A stretch of DNA of 64,000 nt from Cyclobacteriaceae bacterium (GTDB lineage Bacteria > Bacteroidota > Bacteroidia > Cytophagales > Cyclobacteriaceae): positions 547,615 to 611,614 of the forward strand of contig JAHBTY010000004.1 of the NCBI GenBank assembly GCA_019638355.1. The letters run 5' to 3'. The notes beneath the pieces are model-generated. The model was not told the DNA's origin, made no database searches, and saw only the letters and a list, made by a program, of their open reading frames with translations. Numbering within the stretch: position 1 is the stretch's first letter; each line of letters starts with the position of its first letter. The translations under genes and the position numbers were made by a program. Of this stretch, positions 12,929 to 53,863 are shown piece by piece.

Positions 12929-14173
12929 TTATGCAAATCGCTCCGGGTTAAATGACCGAAGTTGCACCGCTGTAGATTTGCCCGACACCAGGTCGGCAAC
13001 AATTTTGCCAGTACCAGGCCCCAGGCTCAGGCCCATCATGGCATGACCGGTAGCTAAAATCAGGTTACTGATTTTTTGCGAGCGACCAATATAAGGCAAC
13101 CCATCTGGTGAGCAAGGTCTTAATCCATGCCAAACATTTTCAATTGCAGGCATGGCTACCTTCAACTCCGGATAGTAGCGTGGTATCGCTTCCACAATAC
13201 CTTTTACCCGATTCATACTAATGCTGTGATCCACACCCGTTATCTCCATCGTTCCACCAAAGCGTAATTGATTACCCATTGGGGTTACTGCTACGCGTGC
13301 TTCCAGAAAGATGGAAGGAATGCGAATATTTTTAGTCACATCTTTCAACAGGAAACTATAACCTTTGCCTGCCTGCATGGGCAGATTCAATTTTAGTTTA
13401 GAAGCCAATGCTCCGGACCATGAGCCTGTAGCCAGAACAACTTCATCTGGTTTTAGCTCACCCGATGAAGTTGTTATTGAATTGATCTTTCCATTTGTTA
13501 AACCGAAGTGTTGTACCTCGGTATTCGATAAAATCGTTACTCCTTTTGATTTCAGAAATGGAATTAACTGATTCATTAAATTTTGAGGTGTGAGGTGCGC
13601 ATCGCCCGGAAAGTAAACCCCACCTCTTGCTGTTACCCGAACATCGGGTTCAAGTGCTTGCACTTCTTCCTGTGAAAGTATTTGTGCTTTAACTCCATGA
13701 TCGTTGGCAATCGCAGCTGTCTCAGCTTCCTCGTGTTCTGTTTCGGCTGTTTGGTATAACATTAACAAACCACGTTCGGCATAGTCGAAGTTAAAGGGCA
13801 GGTCCTTTGCCAATTGCTGATACTGGGCTTTGCTATAAAAACTTAATTCCTTTAATGCCGGAATAGCTGCCTGTACATGGCGTTCGTTTGCATGTTTGTA
13901 AAACTGGTACCCCCATTTCAATAAATCTGCATTCAGGCGTGGCTTTACATAAAACGGACTGGTTGAATTAAACATCCACCGAATGCCTTTGGCAATCATA
14001 CCCGGAGCAGCCAGTGGAATGATATGGCTCGGCACAATCATACCTGCATTACCATGCGAACAGCCATCTGACAAATCACCTTTATCGATAATGGTTACTT
14101 CGTGTCCGGCCCTTCTTAAATAGTACGCTGAACTAAGACCGATTATTCCTCCACCTATTATTGCTACGTTCAT
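12929..14173 (-). CDS. FAD-dependent D-amino acid dehydrogenase, probably cis-4-hydroxy-D-proline dehydrogenase
   Basis: 414 residues of the DAO/DadA family. The N-terminal Rossmann motif GGGIIGLSSAYYLRRAGHEVTIID binds FAD; GCSHGNAGMIVPSHIIPLA and GLRPCSPDGLPYIGRS with LILATGHAMMGLSLGPGTG at the C-terminus are typical of DadA-like dehydrogenases. It is the last gene of the minus-strand operon that also encodes a 4-hydroxyproline epimerase, a dihydrodipicolinate-synthase-like deaminase and an aldehyde dehydrogenase. In that pathway a D-hydroxyproline dehydrogenase oxidises cis-4-hydroxy-D-proline to pyrroline-4-hydroxy-2-carboxylate, so this is the expected role. Enzyme class is seen in the sequence; the substrate is inferred from context. 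Confidence 0.88.
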   Translation of the reverse strand: MNVAIIGGGIIGLSSAYYLRRAGHEVTIIDKGDLSDGCSHGNAGMIVPSHIIPLAAPGMIAKGIRWMFNSTSPFYVKPRLNADLLKWGYQFYKHANERHVQAAIPALKELSFYSKAQYQQLAKDLPFNFDYAERGLLMLYQTAETEHEEAETAAIANDHGVKAQILSQEEVQALEPDVRVTARGGVYFPGDAHLTPQNLMNQLIPFLKSKGVTILSNTEVQHFGLTNGKINSITTSSGELKPDEVVLATGSWSGALASKLKLNLPMQAGKGYSFLLKDVTKNIRIPSIFLEARVAVTPMGNQLRFGGTMEITGVDHSISMNRVKGIVEAIPRYYPELKVAMPAIENVWHGLRPCSPDGLPYIGRSQKISNLILATGHAMMGLSLGPGTGKIVADLVSGKSTAVQLRSFNPERFA

Positions 14174-14174
14174 G

Positions 14175-14216
14175 TTTCTGGTTACTGGTTTCTGGTTTCT
14201 TGTTGCTGGTTAGTGA
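14175..14216. repeat. Heptamer array, left arm beside the four-helix-bundle gene
   Basis: Six consecutive 7-base units: TTTCTGG, TTACTGG, TTTCTGG, TTTCTTG, TTGCTGG, TTAGTGA. It lies directly between the D-amino acid dehydrogenase start and the four-helix-bundle stop. The reverse-complement array is at 14608-14640, so the small gene is enclosed by inverted copies. Confidence 0.75.
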
Positions 14217-14220
14217 GGTG

Positions 14221-14583
14221 TCAATTTCCGTTCTCAACTGCCTTGATGAAGTTGTTCAACTTTCTACCTAATCGCTGTAATCGTTCATGGATTTGGTTAT
14301 ACAAATCTTGATCGGTGAATGATTTTGTTTCAAATAAGGTTTCCAAATGGTCAATCGTTTCATCATTGGAAGCTTGTGCGATAATTAAAAATCGAACATA
14401 CTCAGTCACATATTTTCTTCTTCCATAACCTTCCACAATATTAGAGCGCACTGATTTGATTGATCTACGGATTTGCTGGCCTTCTTCAAATTGTTCGAAC
14501 CGTGGTAATTTCAAACTCATCTCGTGAATAAATATTGAAACCTCCCGTGCTTCTTGCCAAATCTCAAGATTCTTGTAACTCAT
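14221..14583 (-). CDS. Four-helix-bundle protein, 23S rRNA intervening-sequence (S23/IVP) family
   Basis: 120 residues. [23 protein letters not shown], the central [20 protein letters not shown] and [20 protein letters not shown] are the signature of the four-helix-bundle family first seen in 23S rRNA intervening sequences and structurally related to the Avd protein of diversity-generating retroelements. Members are small, basic, pentamer-forming and presumed to bind nucleic acid. Here there is no rRNA or reverse transcriptase nearby: the gene sits between two genes of the hydroxyproline operon in the same orientation, with inverted 7-bp-unit arrays on both sides. It therefore looks like an insert carried by its own repeats rather than an enzyme of the pathway. 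Biological role unknown. Confidence 0.88.
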
Positions 14584-14607
14584 ATTTTATCGTTTCGTCT
14601 AATCTAA

Positions 14608-14640
14608 CAAGAGACCAGAAGCCAGAAACCAGCAACCAAC
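14608..14640. repeat. Heptamer array, right arm beside the four-helix-bundle gene
   Basis: Units CCAGAAG, CCAGAAA, CCAGCAA and CCAACTT, preceded by AAGAGA. This is the inverse complement of the array at 14175-14216 and reaches the epimerase stop codon at 14641. Confidence 0.75.
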
Positions 14641-15642
14641 TTAGATAACCTGAAACCCATACGCATACGGATCATCGTCCGGATCGATGGTAATGGTATT
14701 ATGTCCGTAAATTTTTGCCCAACCTTCTACACTAGGAATAACTGCAGGCTTACCATGTAATTCAGTTTCCTCTTCAATTCGTCCGATAAACTTTGAGCCG
14801 ATTATACTTTCGTGAATAAAGTCTTCACCCTTCTTAAGTTTACCTTTTGCATACCATTGCGCTAAACGTGCTGAGGTACCGGTGCCACACGGTGAACGAT
14901 CAATTGCTTTATCGCCATAGAACACCGCATTACGTGCAGTAGAAGTTGGATCAAGTACTTTACCTGTCCACAAAATATGACTGCAACCATTAATGGTTGG
15001 ATTATCCGGATGCACAAAGGTGTACTTCGCATTGATATTTTTTCGCAACACTCTACTCCAGCTTATCAATTGATCGGCTGTATAATTTTCCAATCCCGGA
15101 AAATTTTTCTGTACATCAACAATCGCATAGAAATTTCCACCATACGAAACATCCAGCGTAAGTTCACCCAGATCAGGACAATCAACTGTCAGATTTTCCG
15201 CTGCGAGGTAAGCTTTCACATTCCGGATTTTTACTGACTTTACTTTGTTACCTTCCTGTTTGTATTCTATTCGCACCAGACCTGCGGGCACTTCAAGGTT
15301 CAGTATTCCTGGAGTCTTTGGTTTCACCAACCCCTCTTCAATGGCAATGGTAACCGTGCCAATAGTTCCATGGCCACACATAGGTAAGCAACCACTGGTT
15401 TCAATGAACAACACACCAACATCGTTGGCCGGATCGGATGGTGGATATAAAATACTACCACTCATCATATCATGACCGCGTGGTTCAAACATTAAACCCT
15501 TACGTATCCAATCATACTCGCGCAGAAAGTGTTGCCGCTTCTCGCTCATGTTATTTCCGATCAATTGTGGTCCGCCCTCTGCAACTACCCGAACCGGATT
15601 ACCACAAGTGTGTGCGTCTATGCATTTGAATGTATATACCAT
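14641..15642 (-). CDS. 4-hydroxyproline 2-epimerase (proline racemase family)
   Basis: 333 residues. This cofactor-independent enzyme converts trans-4-hydroxy-L-proline to cis-4-hydroxy-D-proline. Both catalytic cysteines are present: Cys89 in PMCGHGTIG and Cys252 in DRSPCGTGTSA, which separates it from the trans-3-hydroxyproline dehydratases of the same family (Ser or Thr at the first position). The MCGHGTIG form and SGSILYPPSD are typical of hydroxyproline epimerases rather than true proline racemases. Genes for the three further steps of the pathway surround it. An array of 7-bp units separates it from the aldehyde dehydrogenase gene upstream. Confidence 0.92.
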   Translation of the reverse strand: MVYTFKCIDAHTCGNPVRVVAEGGPQLIGNNMSEKRQHFLREYDWIRKGLMFEPRGHDMMSGSILYPPSDPANDVGVLFIETSGCLPMCGHGTIGTVTIAIEEGLVKPKTPGILNLEVPAGLVRIEYKQEGNKVKSVKIRNVKAYLAAENLTVDCPDLGELTLDVSYGGNFYAIVDVQKNFPGLENYTADQLISWSRVLRKNINAKYTFVHPDNPTINGCSHILWTGKVLDPTSTARNAVFYGDKAIDRSPCGTGTSARLAQWYAKGKLKKGEDFIHESIIGSKFIGRIEEETELHGKPAVIPSVEGWAKIYGHNTITIDPDDDPYAYGFQVI

Positions 15643-31541: not shown

Positions 31542-31549
31542 GTTTTAAA

Positions 31550-31579
31550 GGTATTAGGTATTGTGTATTAGGTATTAGG
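31550..31579. repeat. Short heptamer array GGTATTA between two DUF1801 genes
   Basis: Four units GGTATTA, GGTATTG, TGTATTA, GGTATTA in a row, at the end of one DUF1801 gene. Single orientation, same 7-base period as the larger arrays of this window. Confidence 0.6.
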
Positions 31580-31928
31580 GAGATTTTTTTAACCGATGTT
31601 TTACAATTCGGGTGATCAGTGAAACAGGCAGAGGTTTACCCAACGGAAATTGAATGGTGCCTTTACCAGAAGTTTTATAAGCCGCAAATTCCTTCTGAAA
31701 TTCTTTTGTATCCGGCACACCGTATAATCCGATATGTTGTTTATAGCCGGCAAAGTAAATCAGGTTTTTTCCATTCAATGAAAATGCAGGCATTCCATAA
31801 CTGATTTTTTCTTCGGCCTGTGGTGCAGCTTTATGAATAATAGCGTGCATGTGCTTTAGTTGCACTTGCGTTTCCTTTGGAAACGCAGCAATGTATTCAT
31901 CAATAGAAGCAGCAACCGGTGTTTTCAT
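31575..31928 (-). CDS. DUF1801 (YdhG/Fra-like) protein, copy 2
   Basis: 117 residues: VAASIDEYIAAFPKETQVQLKHMHAIIHKAAPQAEEKISYGMPAFSLNGKNLIYFAGYKQHIGLYG, with the same core as copy 1. It is preceded by a VOC-family gene with a 5-base gap, so it belongs to the operon running from 33242 down to about 31158. No catalytic motif; unknown role. Confidence 0.85.
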   Translation of the reverse strand: MKTPVAASIDEYIAAFPKETQVQLKHMHAIIHKAAPQAEEKISYGMPAFSLNGKNLIYFAGYKQHIGLYGVPDTKEFQKEFAAYKTSGKGTIQFPLGKPLPVSLITRIVKHRLKKSP

Positions 31929-45869: not shown

Positions 45870-45911
45870 GGGTGCAAGATAGGCGTTTGTTGGATGTTGA
45901 TTCTAAAGTCT

Positions 45912-46035
45912 TAAATCGAAAATCAATAATCTATAATCACAACTGAAAGAATTGATTTGTGATCTGTAACTTGTGATTAGTGATTAGTGATTAGTGATTA
46001 GCGATCTGCCAGAAGCCAGTAACCAGTAACTAAAG
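45912..46035. repeat. Heptamer array with GTGATTA and CCAGTAA units
   Basis: Left part AAATCGA, AAATCAA, TAATCTA, TAATCAC; right part repeated GTGATTA four times, then GCGATCT, GCCAGAA, GCCAGTA, ACCAGTA. The two parts are inverted (TAATCAC against GTGATTA), giving a hairpin. Two unit types meet in one array. It lies between hrpB and the next minus-strand gene, whose stop (46030) is inside the array. Confidence 0.7.
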
Positions 46036-46428
46036 TATATCCACATGATACACATCCAACTCGTTGCGTTTAATGTTGGGCACAAAGAAACCACCGGCCT
46101 GCGGAATATCTTCTATCAAATCGAATACTTTGCAATCTTTAGGCAAGGCTGAGAATATCAGGAGAAATGAAAACGTAATCTTTCCCCGAATGATTGTCCA
46201 CTGCGGGGCGAGGGAAATTTTTTCGGCATGTACCAATTCACTTTTAGCTCCCGAAACTTTATCAACCAAAAAAGTAGATCGCCACACGCGTATTAGCATT
46301 TCGGGCAAATCGTTTTTATAATAACAATGTACATACACATGCTGATCTTCCAGTGTCCACGAATCGATGGCAGTAAGCACATCGGTTTCAACTTTGGGCT
46401 TTACAATCGGAATGTCGATAACAGGCAT
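46030..46428 (-). CDS. Unknown protein, 132 aa, between two heptamer arrays
   Basis: 132 residues without signal or transmembrane segment: DIPIVKPKVETDVLTAIDSWTLEDQHVYVHCYYKNDLPEMLIRVWRSTFLVDKVSG, then HAEKISLAPQWTIIRGKITFSFLLIFSALPKDCKVFDLIEDIPQAGGFFVPNIKRNELDVYHVDIL. A beta-rich layout with Trp and Phe patterns; I do not recognise the family. Arrays of 7-bp units stand on both sides (45912-46035 and 46440-46590). No function is suggested by the sequence. Confidence 0.65.
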   Translation of the reverse strand: MPVIDIPIVKPKVETDVLTAIDSWTLEDQHVYVHCYYKNDLPEMLIRVWRSTFLVDKVSGAKSELVHAEKISLAPQWTIIRGKITFSFLLIFSALPKDCKVFDLIEDIPQAGGFFVPNIKRNELDVYHVDIL

Positions 46429-46439
46429 TGGGTATTTTC

Positions 46440-46590
46440 GGTAATCAGTATTCAGTAATCGGTTTCTTATAAATCAATAATCACAAATCACCAGTCAATA
46501 GTCTTAAATCAAATCTGTAGTGATTAGTAATCGGTTTGAGTTAGTTGGTCTGAATAAACCAGAAACCAGCAACTGGTAACCGGTAACACT
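46440..46590. repeat. Long mixed heptamer array between two minus-strand genes
   Basis: Segments with CGGTAAT, CAGTATT, CAGTAAT, CGGTTTC; then AAATCAA, TAATCAC, AAATCAC, CAGTCAA, TAGTCTT, AAATCAA; then GTGATTA, GTAATCG; then AAACCAG, AAACCAG, CAACTGG, TAACCGG. All spaced by about 7 bases. It is upstream of the 132 aa gene and downstream of the YdeI-like gene. Confidence 0.65.
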
Positions 46591-46597
46591 TCCCACC

Positions 46598-47603: not shown

Positions 47604-47722
47604 CTGCTAGTTGCTGGTTTCTTGTCACTGGTAATAACTCCTTCGTTTTAGTGGTAGTTTTTTACTTAAGATGGTCACAACGAGGAACCAGAAACCAGCC
47701 ACCAGTAACTAGTTACCAGTAT
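47602..47722. repeat. Inverted heptamer arrays around a 43-base spacer after the MaoC gene
   Basis: Left arm 47602-47640 with TTAGCTG, CTAGTTG, CTGGTTT, CTTGTCA, CTGGTAA; right arm 47683-47722 with GGAACCAG, AAACCAG, CCACCAG, TAACTAG, TTACCAG. The right arm reaches into the stop region of the next gene (47709). The middle, about 43 bases, is not part of the array. Confidence 0.7.
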
Positions 47723-52212: not shown

Positions 52213-53058
52213 ATGTATCGCGTTCTTTCCATTCTAATTGCATTTAGTGTTACCGGTTATTCACAACCTTTAACCACCTACACCAACAGCATTGGCATTG
52301 AATTTATTGAAGTGCCAGCCGGAAGTTTTACAGTAGGAAAATTTGAACCTACCACATCGCAGTTTGGCTTTCTGCAACAATATCGGAAGGATGAAACCGA
52401 TGAAATGGGTTTACCAAAACTCAAGGCCAGCGATTACGAAGCCGCTAAGCAACTTGCTTTACGCGATGCGCGCGCGGGGTTTGAGGTAACGATTTCAAAA
52501 CCTTTCTACATCGGCAAGTTTGAAGTTACACAAGCTCAATGGAGAAAAGTGATGAGCACAAACCCGGCACACTTTCAGGGAAACAATATAAAAGGCAACA
52601 CCGATAATTTTCCGGTTGAAAGTATAACCTGGAAAGAAGTACAGCTATTCATAAAAAAACTGAATCAACTTGAAAAAGGTAAAGCCGCGTATCGCTTGCC
52701 AACCGAGTTTGAATGGGAATATGCAGCGCGTGCCGGAAACAAAGATGACATTGCCTGGAACGAAATAAATGAAACAGCGCACATCGCTAAACTAACCCCG
52801 CAAGCAGTCGGGCAAAAAAAACCAAATGCCTGGGGTTTGTACGATATGTTGGGCAACGTGTGGGAATGGGTTAATGACTATTACAATGAAAAAATATTTG
52901 CCGATCCGGTACCTCCCAAAAAAGCGAAGCAACACGTTTTAAAAGGTTCTTGCTTTTATGGCGATGTAAAAAACGCAACGTATATGACGCATGCCGGTGG
53001 GCCGGGAAGCGGATATGATACAGGGTTTAGGTTGGTGGTTGAAATTATTAATCGGTAA
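52213..53058 (+). CDS. Formylglycine-generating-enzyme-like (SUMF1/EgtB) secreted protein
   Basis: 281 residues with a signal peptide ending GYSQ. IEFIEVPAGSFTVGKFEPT, KPFYIGKFEVTQAQWRKVMSTNPAHF, FPVESITWKEVQLFIKKLNQL, YRLPTEFEWEYAARAGN, WGLYDMLGNVWEWVNDYY and GGSYD-like GSCFYGD are the complete FGE-sulfatase pattern. The catalytic Cys pair of true FGE is not clearly visible, so it may be a binding or non-sulfatase member. Its stop overlaps a heptamer array. Confidence 0.88.
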   Translation: MYRVLSILIAFSVTGYSQPLTTYTNSIGIEFIEVPAGSFTVGKFEPTTSQFGFLQQYRKDETDEMGLPKLKASDYEAAKQLALRDARAGFEVTISKPFYIGKFEVTQAQWRKVMSTNPAHFQGNNIKGNTDNFPVESITWKEVQLFIKKLNQLEKGKAAYRLPTEFEWEYAARAGNKDDIAWNEINETAHIAKLTPQAVGQKKPNAWGLYDMLGNVWEWVNDYYNEKIFADPVPPKKAKQHVLKGSCFYGDVKNATYMTHAGGPGSGYDTGFRLVVEIINR

Positions 53059-53183
53059 TCAGTAATCGGGTGATCAGTTATAGTTAAGCAGTATTCGGTA
53101 AGCAGTAGCAGTATTCGGTAACTAATCGAAATAGTTTAGTCAAAACAAACCAGAAACCAGTAACGAGAAACCAGAAGCCAGAA
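53050..53183. repeat. Heptamer array between the SUMF1-like and DUF1080 genes
   Basis: Units ATCGGTA, ATCAGTA, ATCGGGT, GATCAGT; AAGCAGT, ATTCGGT, AAGCAGT, ATTCGGT; AAACCAG, AAACCAG, TAACGAG, AAACCAG, AAGCCAG. The left end includes the SUMF1-like stop (TAA at 53056-53058) and the right end stops 2 bases before the ATG of the next gene. Single orientation, same 7-base period. Confidence 0.68.
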
Positions 53184-53185
53184 CA

Positions 53186-53863
53186 ATGAAACTTCTCTCT
53201 ATAATTATCATCAGTCTATTCAGTACACTTTGTTGCGCACAAATCCCGAAAGGATTTAAACCATTATTCAACGGAAAGAATCTGAAAGGTTGGCATGTAA
53301 GCAGAACCACGCATCAGGGCACCACACCCAACTTTTATGTGGAAGATGGCGCTATTGTAGCCAGTCAGCAACCATTTGGGCAAGGTGGAATTTTATTAAC
53401 CGATAAACGTTTTCGCGATTTTGAGTTGTACATCGAAATAAAAATTGATTCGTTCGCGAATGGTGGAATTTTTCTGCGCTCCAACGAAGGTGGTGCAGCC
53501 TATCAGATAGAACTGGTACTTCCGGGCAACACGGGTGATCTACTGGGCGAACGTACTCCCGTAAGTGTATCGGGCAAAGCTACCAATTTAAATGAAGTCT
53601 GGAAGGCAGGCGACTGGAATTCATTTCGCATCCGCATGACGGGGGAAATTCCAAGAGTCACATTATGGATCAACGAGGTAGAAATGTACAGCGTACAACA
53701 AACTAAAAATGATTTTATAGCCGGTGCTGCTGAGGGCAAGATAGCGTTGCAATGTCATTGGACAGCCGTATATGCACCAACCGCCAGTGGTGGGATGCCA
53801 CTAAGCTCATGGATACCGGGCGCAAAACATCGGTATCGAAATATTGGGATAAAAGAGTTGTGA
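53186..53863 (+). CDS. Secreted DUF1080 (3-keto-disaccharide hydrolase-like) protein, copy 1
   Basis: 225 residues, signal peptide ending LCCAQ. FKPLFNGKNLKGWHVSRTTHQGTTPNFYVEDGAIVASQQPFGQGGILLTDKRFRDFELYIEIKID, FLRSNEGGAAYQIELVLPGN and PGAKHRYRNIGIKEL are the jelly-roll DUF1080 hallmarks. Members act on 3-keto-glycosides or bind sugars in the periplasm. Related to the protein at 54453-55169. The call of the family is firm; the substrate is not. Confidence 0.88.
   Translation: MKLLSIIIISLFSTLCCAQIPKGFKPLFNGKNLKGWHVSRTTHQGTTPNFYVEDGAIVASQQPFGQGGILLTDKRFRDFELYIEIKIDSFANGGIFLRSNEGGAAYQIELVLPGNTGDLLGERTPVSVSGKATNLNEVWKAGDWNSFRIRMTGEIPRVTLWINEVEMYSVQQTKNDFIAGAAEGKIALQCHWTAVYAPTASGGMPLSSWIPGAKHRYRNIGIKEL

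What the first reader, a model, noticed from the sequence alone, without database searches (positions are those of the whole stretch)
14175..14640. Four-helix-bundle (S23/IVP) gene enclosed by inverted heptamer arrays, inserted in a metabolic operon
Seen: a gene of the 23S rRNA intervening-sequence protein family lies between epimerase and dehydrogenase genes of the hydroxyproline operon, and both its sides carry 7-bp-unit arrays in opposite orientation (TTTCTGG on one side, CCAGAAA on the other). Known: this family shares its fold with Avd of diversity-generating retroelements and appears as inserts in rRNA. Inference: gene plus arrays act as one insertable unit, perhaps with the protein recognising the array hairpins, by analogy with the RAYT/REPIN pair. 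The function of non-rRNA members is not established.
Basis: partly seen in the sequence, partly recalled or inferred. Interest (0 to 1): 0.75.

Follow-up and report, generated by a model that had tools for sequence, protein, structure and literature searches.

The report
Operon insert with matching repeat ends
A small gene of a protein family known from fragmented ribosomal RNA sits between two metabolic genes together with its own pair of mirror-image 7-letter repeat arrays; the same gene-plus-arrays package turns up between genes in many bacteria, which suggests a widespread, hardly noticed genetic element whose protein may read its own repeats.

Summary
Window gene 14221-14583(-) is an S23/IVP four-helix protein (PF05635; AlphaFold model matches 2gsc, 2rld, Avd 4dwl). 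It fills the gap between hydroxyproline epimerase and a DAO dehydrogenase, with one arm of an inverted 7-bp array on each side. All five IVP genes of this genome lie between such arms. At 47 distinct sites, 32 have inverted arms (direct similarity 4), against 12 of 367 control genes and 1 of 26 ParE-type loci. It recurs across Bacteroidota and in Balneolaceae, Ignavibacteriae, Pontiellaceae and a Syntrophobacterales MAG. Units are degenerate, period 7 (sometimes 8), usually with purine-G on the 5' arm. Unit type tends to follow the protein: IVPs alike at unrelated operons share it more often. Two operons show presence/absence, gene-less palindromes and decayed copies. So gene plus arms behaves as one heritable, insertable unit. 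It resembles a 23S rRNA intervening sequence placed between cistrons; the Coxiella IVS also carries heptamers. Recognition of the arms by the IVP protein is inferred; RNase III excision and the means of spread are untested. The RAYT/REPIN analogy holds only loosely.

The parts
14221..14583 (-). IVP/S23 four-helix-bundle protein gene, 120 aa
   Evidence: PF05635 88.4 bits; TIGR02436 91.7 bits; AlphaFold pLDDT 95.3, best match 2gsc TM 0.89, 2rld 0.80, Avd 4dwl 0.77; dN 0.049 vs dS 1.41 against the G024 orthologue
14604..14640 (-). 5' arm (upstream of the IVP gene in sense direction), degenerate heptamers TGGTTNC, begins right after the epimerase stop codon
14174..14214 (-). 3' arm, inverted copy (CCAGNAA units in sense direction), ends at the dehydrogenase start codon
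   Evidence: TRF period 7, 5.4 copies
14641..15642 (-). upstream host cistron, 4-hydroxyproline epimerase
   Evidence: NF010578 598.9 bits over cut-off
12929..14173 (-). downstream host cistron, FAD-dependent D-amino-acid dehydrogenase-like (DAO)
   Evidence: PF01266 249.7 bits
17205..17300 (.). gene-less palindrome of the same TGGTTNC unit between two further genes of the same run
   Evidence: G000:C4:564838+/564884-

Best explanation
The IVP gene and its two inverted arrays are one genetic element, an intercistronic counterpart of the 23S rRNA intervening sequence (IVS). It sits co-directionally in the small gap between two cistrons of an operon, with arms reaching from the upstream stop codon to the downstream start codon. 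In the transcript the arms pair into a hairpin with the IVP reading frame in the loop. The unit sequence (five or six variable bases plus purine-G, most often about five units per arm) is matched to the element's own IVP protein, a four-helix protein whose solved relative is a ring-shaped pentamer. The protein most likely binds the repeated units of its own element, in RNA or DNA. The hairpin is probably cut by RNase III, as in rRNA IVSs, so that the host cistrons are spared. Gene-less palindromes can arise by internal deletion. Shown here: architecture, generality, co-inheritance of arms with protein across unrelated sites, presence/absence polymorphism, purifying selection on the window gene's lineage. 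Supported: polarity of the units. Inferred: protein-array binding, RNase III processing. Unknown: the machinery that moves the unit.
For: Inverted arms at 32 of 47 distinct sites against direct similarity at 4 of 47; 100 sampled controls 1 and 6; all 367 controls 12 inverted. ParE-type loci 1 of 26. Named genomes 64 of 78 inverted, 21 of 78 direct; five genomes outside the Bacteroidota searched whole, 23 of 27 (five of these loci are also). At different sites array similarity rises with IVP identity: 6.95 (<30%), 7.05, 7.26, 8.74, 10.24, 13.22 (>=70%); for >=60% the site-pair mean is 9.76 against permuted 8.05, sd 0.41, maximum 9.45 of 1000. The 140 most similar of 222 such pairs (>=65%) have no homology on the outer flanks, and 50 of 140 score 16 or more against 3 of 150 baseline pairs (positive controls). 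Example: sister-subfamily IVPs at three different operons, 9 of 10 with inverted GTT(A/G)C-type arms. Empty or derived sites at two operons. Palindrome polarity 11 to 0 in the own genome. Purine-G column in 41 of 53 arrays sense, 10 antisense. Upstream stop codon at median -1 nt from the 5' arm (125 of 132), downstream ATG 6 nt after the 3' arm (112 of 132, no control run). MFE pairs at least half of the 5' arm with the 3' arm in 39 of 45. dN/dS 0.035 and 0.041 in the two pairs where dS could be computed. Coxiella 23S IVS: 28-bp stem, RNase III excision, tandem GACAGAT heptamers before the S23p ORF (PMC4990558, passages).
Against: No binding or processing was measured. 15 of 47 sites lack clearly inverted arms and 5 of 47 lack a significant array on either side. 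Pairs at the same site with diverged IVPs still have somewhat similar arrays: 9.3-9.7 at 30-50% identity in the larger set; in the smaller set 10.07 at 30-40% but 6.15 at 40-50%. So site history contributes. Even at 70% or more, only 43% of different-site pairs score 16 or more. Units in the two arms are only slightly better matched in order than when permuted (16.75 vs 15.82; 4 of 51 individually significant), so strict stem selection is weak. The information content of the unit motif is no higher than with arrays flipped at random (2.68 vs mean 2.56, maximum 2.84), so polarity rests on the column count and. No near-identical copies at two sites of one genome were seen among 67 same-genome pairs (one at 60% or more), but no dedicated search was made. 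Pfam shows no catalytic domain in the IVP. Solo arrays outnumber IVPs (62 CTGGTTNC clusters in the own genome, some of them chance matches inside ORFs) and occur in G009, which has no close IVP.
Confidence: 0.6

Rival explanations
1. RNA-only element: the hairpin is what matters (an insulator or RNase III site between cistrons) and the protein is incidental, as proposed for the Coxiella IVS.
For: Arms pair in the MFE (39 of 45); gene-less palindromes with the same polarity exist (10 in the own genome); PMC4990558 suggests S23p is not made in Coxiella (passages).
Against: Purifying selection (dN 0.049, dS 1.41); unit type tracks the protein; unit order is hardly conserved between arms.
Confidence: 0.17
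2. RAYT/REPIN-like system: the IVP protein (with unknown partners) mobilises the arrays, and gene-less palindromes are non-autonomous copies spread in trans.
For: Gene-less palindromes share unit and polarity with the IVP element (11 to 0); 43 array matches in the own genome and 37 in G008, none there for the reversed pattern; both kinds alternate at the same sites.
Against: No RT in the own genome (no PF00078 hit; 39 of 58 genomes have none) and no transposase domain in the protein. Array counts do not follow the gene: G009 has 29 without a close IVP, G041 has two close IVPs but 7 arrays. A deletion form (L360) offers a simpler origin of gene-less palindromes.
Confidence: 0.15
3. Neutral slippage: heptamer arrays grow in any non-coding gap and the IVP gene is a hitch-hiker.
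For: Heptamer arrays occur without IVP; MacGregor 2015 reports from Mrazek 2007 that slippage may favour 7-nt units (passages).
Against: Arrays at IVP genes are inverted, not direct, are not found at ParE-type loci, and match between unrelated sites with similar IVPs.
Confidence: 0.04
4. The arms act mainly as transcription or Rho-type attenuators of the host operon, co-opted from the element (G-poor, regularly spaced 3' arm).
For: Composition: C about 0.11 on the 5' arm strand, hence a G-poor 3' arm; intercistronic position.
Against: No terminator data; does not explain why the unit tracks the protein. The Rho parallel is recalled, not tested.
Confidence: 0.04

Closest known systems
23S rRNA intervening sequence (IVS) with S23p ORF, e.g. 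Coxiella, Leptospira (PMC4990558, passages seen)
   Same: Same protein family, similar length (428-444 nt there, 467 nt here), ORF in the loop of a hairpin with terminal inverted repeats; Coxiella also has tandem heptamers (GACAGAT) before the ORF
   Different: Here the element lies between protein-coding cistrons, not in rRNA; both arms are degenerate heptamer arrays; unit type tracks the protein; several different copies per genome; window protein under purifying selection
Avd of diversity-generating retroelements (4dwl)
   Same: Same fold (TM 0.77 by query length)
   Different: No reverse transcriptase hit in the own genome; the one IVP-family copy seen beside an RT (L037) has no arrays
RAYT/REPIN (recalled)
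   Same: Gene enclosed by palindrome-forming sequences, with related gene-less palindromes in the genome
   Different: Protein is not a Y1 transposase; tandem degenerate 7-mers rather than fixed REP sequences; no clear gene-array correlation across genomes
TAACTGA and other heptamer direct repeats (MacGregor 2015, PMC4679880, passages seen)
   Same: Intergenic 7-nt tandem units in Bacteroidetes, Cyanobacteria, Beggiatoaceae
   Different: Fixed-sequence direct repeats; no link to IVP genes ('S23' and 'intervening' have no occurrence in that main text)
TRAP (trp RNA-binding attenuation protein; recalled)
   Same: Ring protein and regularly spaced NAG-type repeats with free spacers: a functional analogy only
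   Different: No relation by the family or fold searches made here; spacing 7-8 instead of about 5; binding untested here

Membership tests
S23/IVP protein family (PF05635, TIGR02436) | Profile score over curated cut-off | tested here: met
   88.4 vs 33.8 bits; 91.7 vs 24 bits
S23/IVP protein family (PF05635, TIGR02436) | Four-helix-bundle fold like 2gsc/2rld | tested here: met
   pLDDT 95.3, TM 0.89 and 0.80
S23/IVP protein family (PF05635, TIGR02436) | Homopentameric ring | not testable with these tools
   2gsc has 5 chains; PMC4990558 cites a toroidal homopentamer; not modelled for this protein
23S rRNA IVS | Located inside a 23S rRNA gene | tested here: not met
   Flanked by protein genes; Rfam search of 13 IVP loci, including all 5 own ones, found no rRNA
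23S rRNA IVS | Terminal inverted repeats forming a stem around the ORF | tested here: met
   Duplex -41.8 kcal/mol vs shuffled -18.7
23S rRNA IVS | Excision by RNase III | not testable with these tools
   Needs RNA data
RAYT/REPIN | Y1-type transposase gene | tested here: not met
   Only PF05635 matches in Pfam at E <= 0.001
RAYT/REPIN | Dispersed palindromes whose number depends on the cognate gene | tested here: inconclusive
   Same-type palindromes exist, but counts do not follow the gene clearly
Diversity-generating retroelement | Reverse transcriptase | tested here: not met
   No PF00078 hit in the own genome
Diversity-generating retroelement | Template and variable repeats | not tested
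   Not sought
TAACTGA heptamer repeats | Fixed TAACTGA unit in direct repeat | tested here: not met
   Units degenerate and inverted

The most novel reading that the evidence does not exclude
IVP proteins are five-fold rings that read five regularly spaced purine-G units in their own arms, a TRAP-like but unrelated repeat-reading ring. Each protein lineage reads its own unit, and gene plus arms form a selfish intercistronic element found from Bacteroidota to other phyla, of which rRNA IVSs are a side branch. Support: purine-G column at fixed 7/8-nt spacing and a modal arm length of five units (strict runs: 90 of 264 arms against 1 of 264 shuffled; only 13 and 14 of 50 after thinning, with 4 and 6 units close behind).
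Probability: 0.23. Interest if true: 0.92.

Novelty: new variant of a known kind. Interest (0 to 1): 0.8.

Why it matters
S23/IVP proteins are very common (157 of 198 sampled genomes of this phylum have one), yet their function is open (PMC4990558 says 'no known function', passages). The matched arms name a candidate ligand that can be tested directly, tie the rRNA intervening sequences to a much wider class of insertions in ordinary operons, and may explain part of the degenerate heptamer arrays scattered in these genomes. Because the fold is that of Avd, the same test bears on how DGR accessory proteins read nucleic acid.

Tried and rejected
Toxin-antitoxin cargo as a general carrier of such arms: ParE-type loci of the genus show inverted similarity at 1 of 26 (the one printed, L180, has no heptamer periodicity) and a periodic downstream flank at 1 of 26, although TA-like genes (identified by eye) occupy the same gap in two relatives (L009, L016). 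RT-dependent spread: rejected as a general mechanism, no RT hit in the own genome. Known RNA family: the only Rfam hit in 13 loci is a SAM riboswitch beside another gene. Genome-wide array type: array similarity of different sites within one genome is no higher than between genomes (7.09 vs 7.20). Strict stem covariation: only a weak unit-order effect. REPIN-like dosage: not clear; high CTGGTTNC counts lie in several close relatives (G008, G009, G018, G053) but G046, about as close by HslU identity, has none. A random-strand control for the motif did not separate (IC mean 2.56, maximum 2.84 vs 2.68 observed). Gene-less arrays between co-directional genes are not notably more frequent than in controls (12 of 16 places by my own de-duplication of the 30 hits given, four of which lie inside ORFs, vs 116 of 182).

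Limits of the counts: the 75 genus loci are 5 own ones, the 30 best-scoring and 40 that I chose from the capped list, mostly from well-assembled genomes; the 30 phylum loci are best-scoring hits. The 192-locus set left out L186 and L188 (copies of L053 and L046), L238 and L243 (cut off), L266, L272, L273, L278, L281 (duplicate, broken or on short contigs) and L285-L295, and dropped L078, L237, L249 (stop inside); it still holds at least one duplicate (L187 = L057), which also counts. One search used the first locus of each of 47 sites (105 loci). One search skipped 4 of 30 ParE loci; one search skipped 2 of 80 and includes at least three copies of genus loci; one search used 27 of 30 (L353 not entered, L331 and L344 dropped). 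One search checked the 140 most similar of 222 pairs. One search folded 45 of 52 representatives. In one search, dS was saturated in 8 of 10 pairs.

Full report
What is there. The gene 14221-14583(-) encodes a 120-aa protein of the S23/23S-rRNA-IVP family. It lies between 4-hydroxyproline epimerase and a DAO-type dehydrogenase, in a run of same-strand genes with an aldehyde dehydrogenase and a DapA-like gene. The element fills the intercistronic space: epimerase stop codon, 5' arm, IVP gene, 3' arm, dehydrogenase ATG. The arms are degenerate heptamers of type TGGTTNC and its inverse, and pair at -41.8 kcal/mol against -18.7 (sd 3.7) for 500 shuffles. AlphaFold2 gives a confident four-helix bundle (pLDDT 95.3). 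Its nearest solved structures are 2gsc and 2rld, then the DGR protein Avd 4dwl (Foldseek E 0.06 for Avd, probability 1.00, TM 0.77).

It is the rule, not an accident. The own genome has five PF05635 genes. All five are enclosed by inverted heptamer arrays. Each pair has its own unit, though those of L003 and L004 are alike, and the 5' arm of L001 is not significant by itself (p 0.1). In 75 loci of the genus the best lag in the flanks is 7 (mean 18.5 of 28, then 17.0 at lag 14, others 12-14). Both flanks periodic and mutually inverted: 30 of 75 against 1 of 367 control genes. With 30 best-scoring loci from the phylum this gives 105 loci at 47 distinct sites: at least one significant array at 42, both at 24, inverted similarity at 32 and direct similarity at 4. 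For 100 random genes the figures are 8, 0, 1 and 6. Eighty named loci from many Bacteroidota and a few other groups show inverted arms at 64 of 78 usable ones, direct similarity at 21; the latter is raised because some flanks hold whole palindromes. The genomes behind a Pontiellaceae, an Ignavibacteriae, a Balneolaceae, a Fodinibius and a Syntrophobacterales record show it at 5 of 6, 7 of 7, 3 of 4, 6 of 7 and 2 of 3; three of the five records are MAGs. Some elements have period 8 (6 of 50 thinned elements).

Controls that do not show it. ParE-type loci of the same genus: 1 of 26. An IVP next to a reverse transcriptase, i.e. a likely DGR Avd (L037): no arrays.

Anatomy. A phase-free fit gives NNNNN-A(.75)G(.86) for period 7 (116 arrays from 79 loci). 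After thinning (53 arrays) it is purine-G with information 2.68 against 1.95 (sd .09) when columns are permuted. The purine-G pair is on the expected strand in 41 of 53 arrays and on the other in 10. Flipping arrays at random and refitting gives about the same information (2.56, maximum 2.84), so the polarity claim rests on the count and on the palindromes: in the own genome all 11 paired CTGGTTNC arrays have the same polarity; one is the IVP element and ten are gene-less. Strict unit counts peak at five (90 of 264 arms; shuffled mode two); after thinning the peak stays at five but is broad. Elements lie co-directionally between ORFs (125 of 132 with an upstream co-directional ORF ending near the 5' arm, 112 of 132 with a downstream ATG near the 3' arm, no control run).

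Gene and arms travel together. Between different sites, array similarity rises with IVP identity from 6.95 to 13.22; at 60% and above it exceeds 1000 permutations. Of the 140 most similar different-site pairs, none shares outer flanking genes, yet 50 share array type strongly. The check does detect flank homology in known same-site pairs. A clear case is the SYRxLEIY subfamily. It occurs between lon and hslU, at an argE/dapE-like to argH-like junction, and between cysD and cysN in different genomes; 9 of 10 copies looked at have inverted arms with GTT(A/G)C-type units, L274 does not (gene names by eye from the sequences, not from a family search). Contrary detail: diverged IVPs at one site often still have somewhat similar arrays (9.3-9.7; 10.07 and 6.15 in two bins), so site history also leaves a mark.

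Presence and absence. At the hydroxyproline site 24 genomes could be compared: 3 IVP with arms (one frameshifted), 1 IVP remnant, 4 arrays or palindromes without a gene (L007, L019, L025, L033), 2 TA-like and 3 small-ORF inserts (named by eye), 11 with 4-22 nt only. Further copies at that site were found in G041, G059 and G045. At lon-hslU, 40 genomes were searched, 30 loci given and 25 could be compared (arms judged by eye): 3 intact elements, 1 with both arms but an internally deleted gene (L360), 2 gene-less palindromes of another unit type (L357, L362), and 19 without an IVP hit, three of these with an unrelated insert of about 1 kb. The deletion form shows how gene-less palindromes can arise.

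Selection. The window gene and its G024 orthologue differ by dN 0.049 and dS 1.41, G024 and G041 by 0.079 and 1.93; in the other 8 of 10 pairs dS was saturated. The protein is under strong constraint in this lineage.

Mechanism. The arms' unit type follows the protein, both arms share one unit without strict order, the unit has a fixed spacing, and a solved family member is reported to be a ring pentamer. This points to recognition of the arms by the element's own protein. In RNA the arms also pair (39 of 45 folds). The best-studied relative, the Coxiella 23S rRNA IVS, is an S23p ORF in the loop of a 28-bp terminal-repeat stem cut by RNase III. It too carries tandem heptamers before the ORF (PMC4990558, passages). 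I therefore read the window element as an intercistronic IVS. Binding, processing and the route of spread are inference.

Literature. Nine full-text searches were made, all but aimed at repeats together with S23/IVP/four-helix genes, intervening sequences or Bacteroidetes/Flavobacterium intergenic regions. Among the papers they listed I saw none whose title or abstract start describes inverted heptamer arms at S23/IVP genes outside rRNA. Only two papers were opened, PMC4679880 and PMC4990558, passages only; the others were seen as listings. PMC5524665 (F. columnare), which holds 'four helix bundle protein' twice, was not opened. The library lacks most subscription journals.

Noticed in passing
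window 45900-46030, 46469-46591, 47678-47721, 53049-53192, 31544-31584: Further heptamer arrays without an IVP gene; the window holds 9 of the 13 period-7 arrays found at this threshold in 464 kb of the genome, two of the 9 being the IVP arms.
   Followed up: partly
window 46030-46428 (-): A 132-aa ORF without Pfam match sits between inverted heptamer arrays: the only control gene in 367 to pass the combined test.
   Followed up: partly
L009 and L016, epimerase-dehydrogenase gap: Two-gene toxin-antitoxin-like inserts (by eye) at the same gap as the IVP element in two relatives; L009 keeps a TGGTTNC-like array on one side.
   Followed up: no
L012, L013, L014, epimerase-dehydrogenase gap: A small zinc-ribbon-like ORF (by eye) occupies the same gap in three relatives.
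   Followed up: no
L037 (G055:C14): IVP-family gene beside a reverse transcriptase, probably a DGR Avd, without heptamer arms.
   Followed up: partly
L302, L311, L321: The palindrome CCCGATAGCTATCGGGA (or its inverse) lies in or beside several gene-less arrays.
   Followed up: no
L002: IVP element between two methionine-synthase (MetH) parts (by eye), with a SAM riboswitch upstream.
   Followed up: no
L007 (G009), epimerase-dehydrogenase gap: A gene-less palindrome that looks 8-bp periodic (CACATAGA type, by eye) in a close relative, a different unit from the 7-bp arms in the window.
   Followed up: no
G058, G056: Some genomes of the genus carry about 20 ParE-type toxin genes (21 and 19).
   Followed up: no
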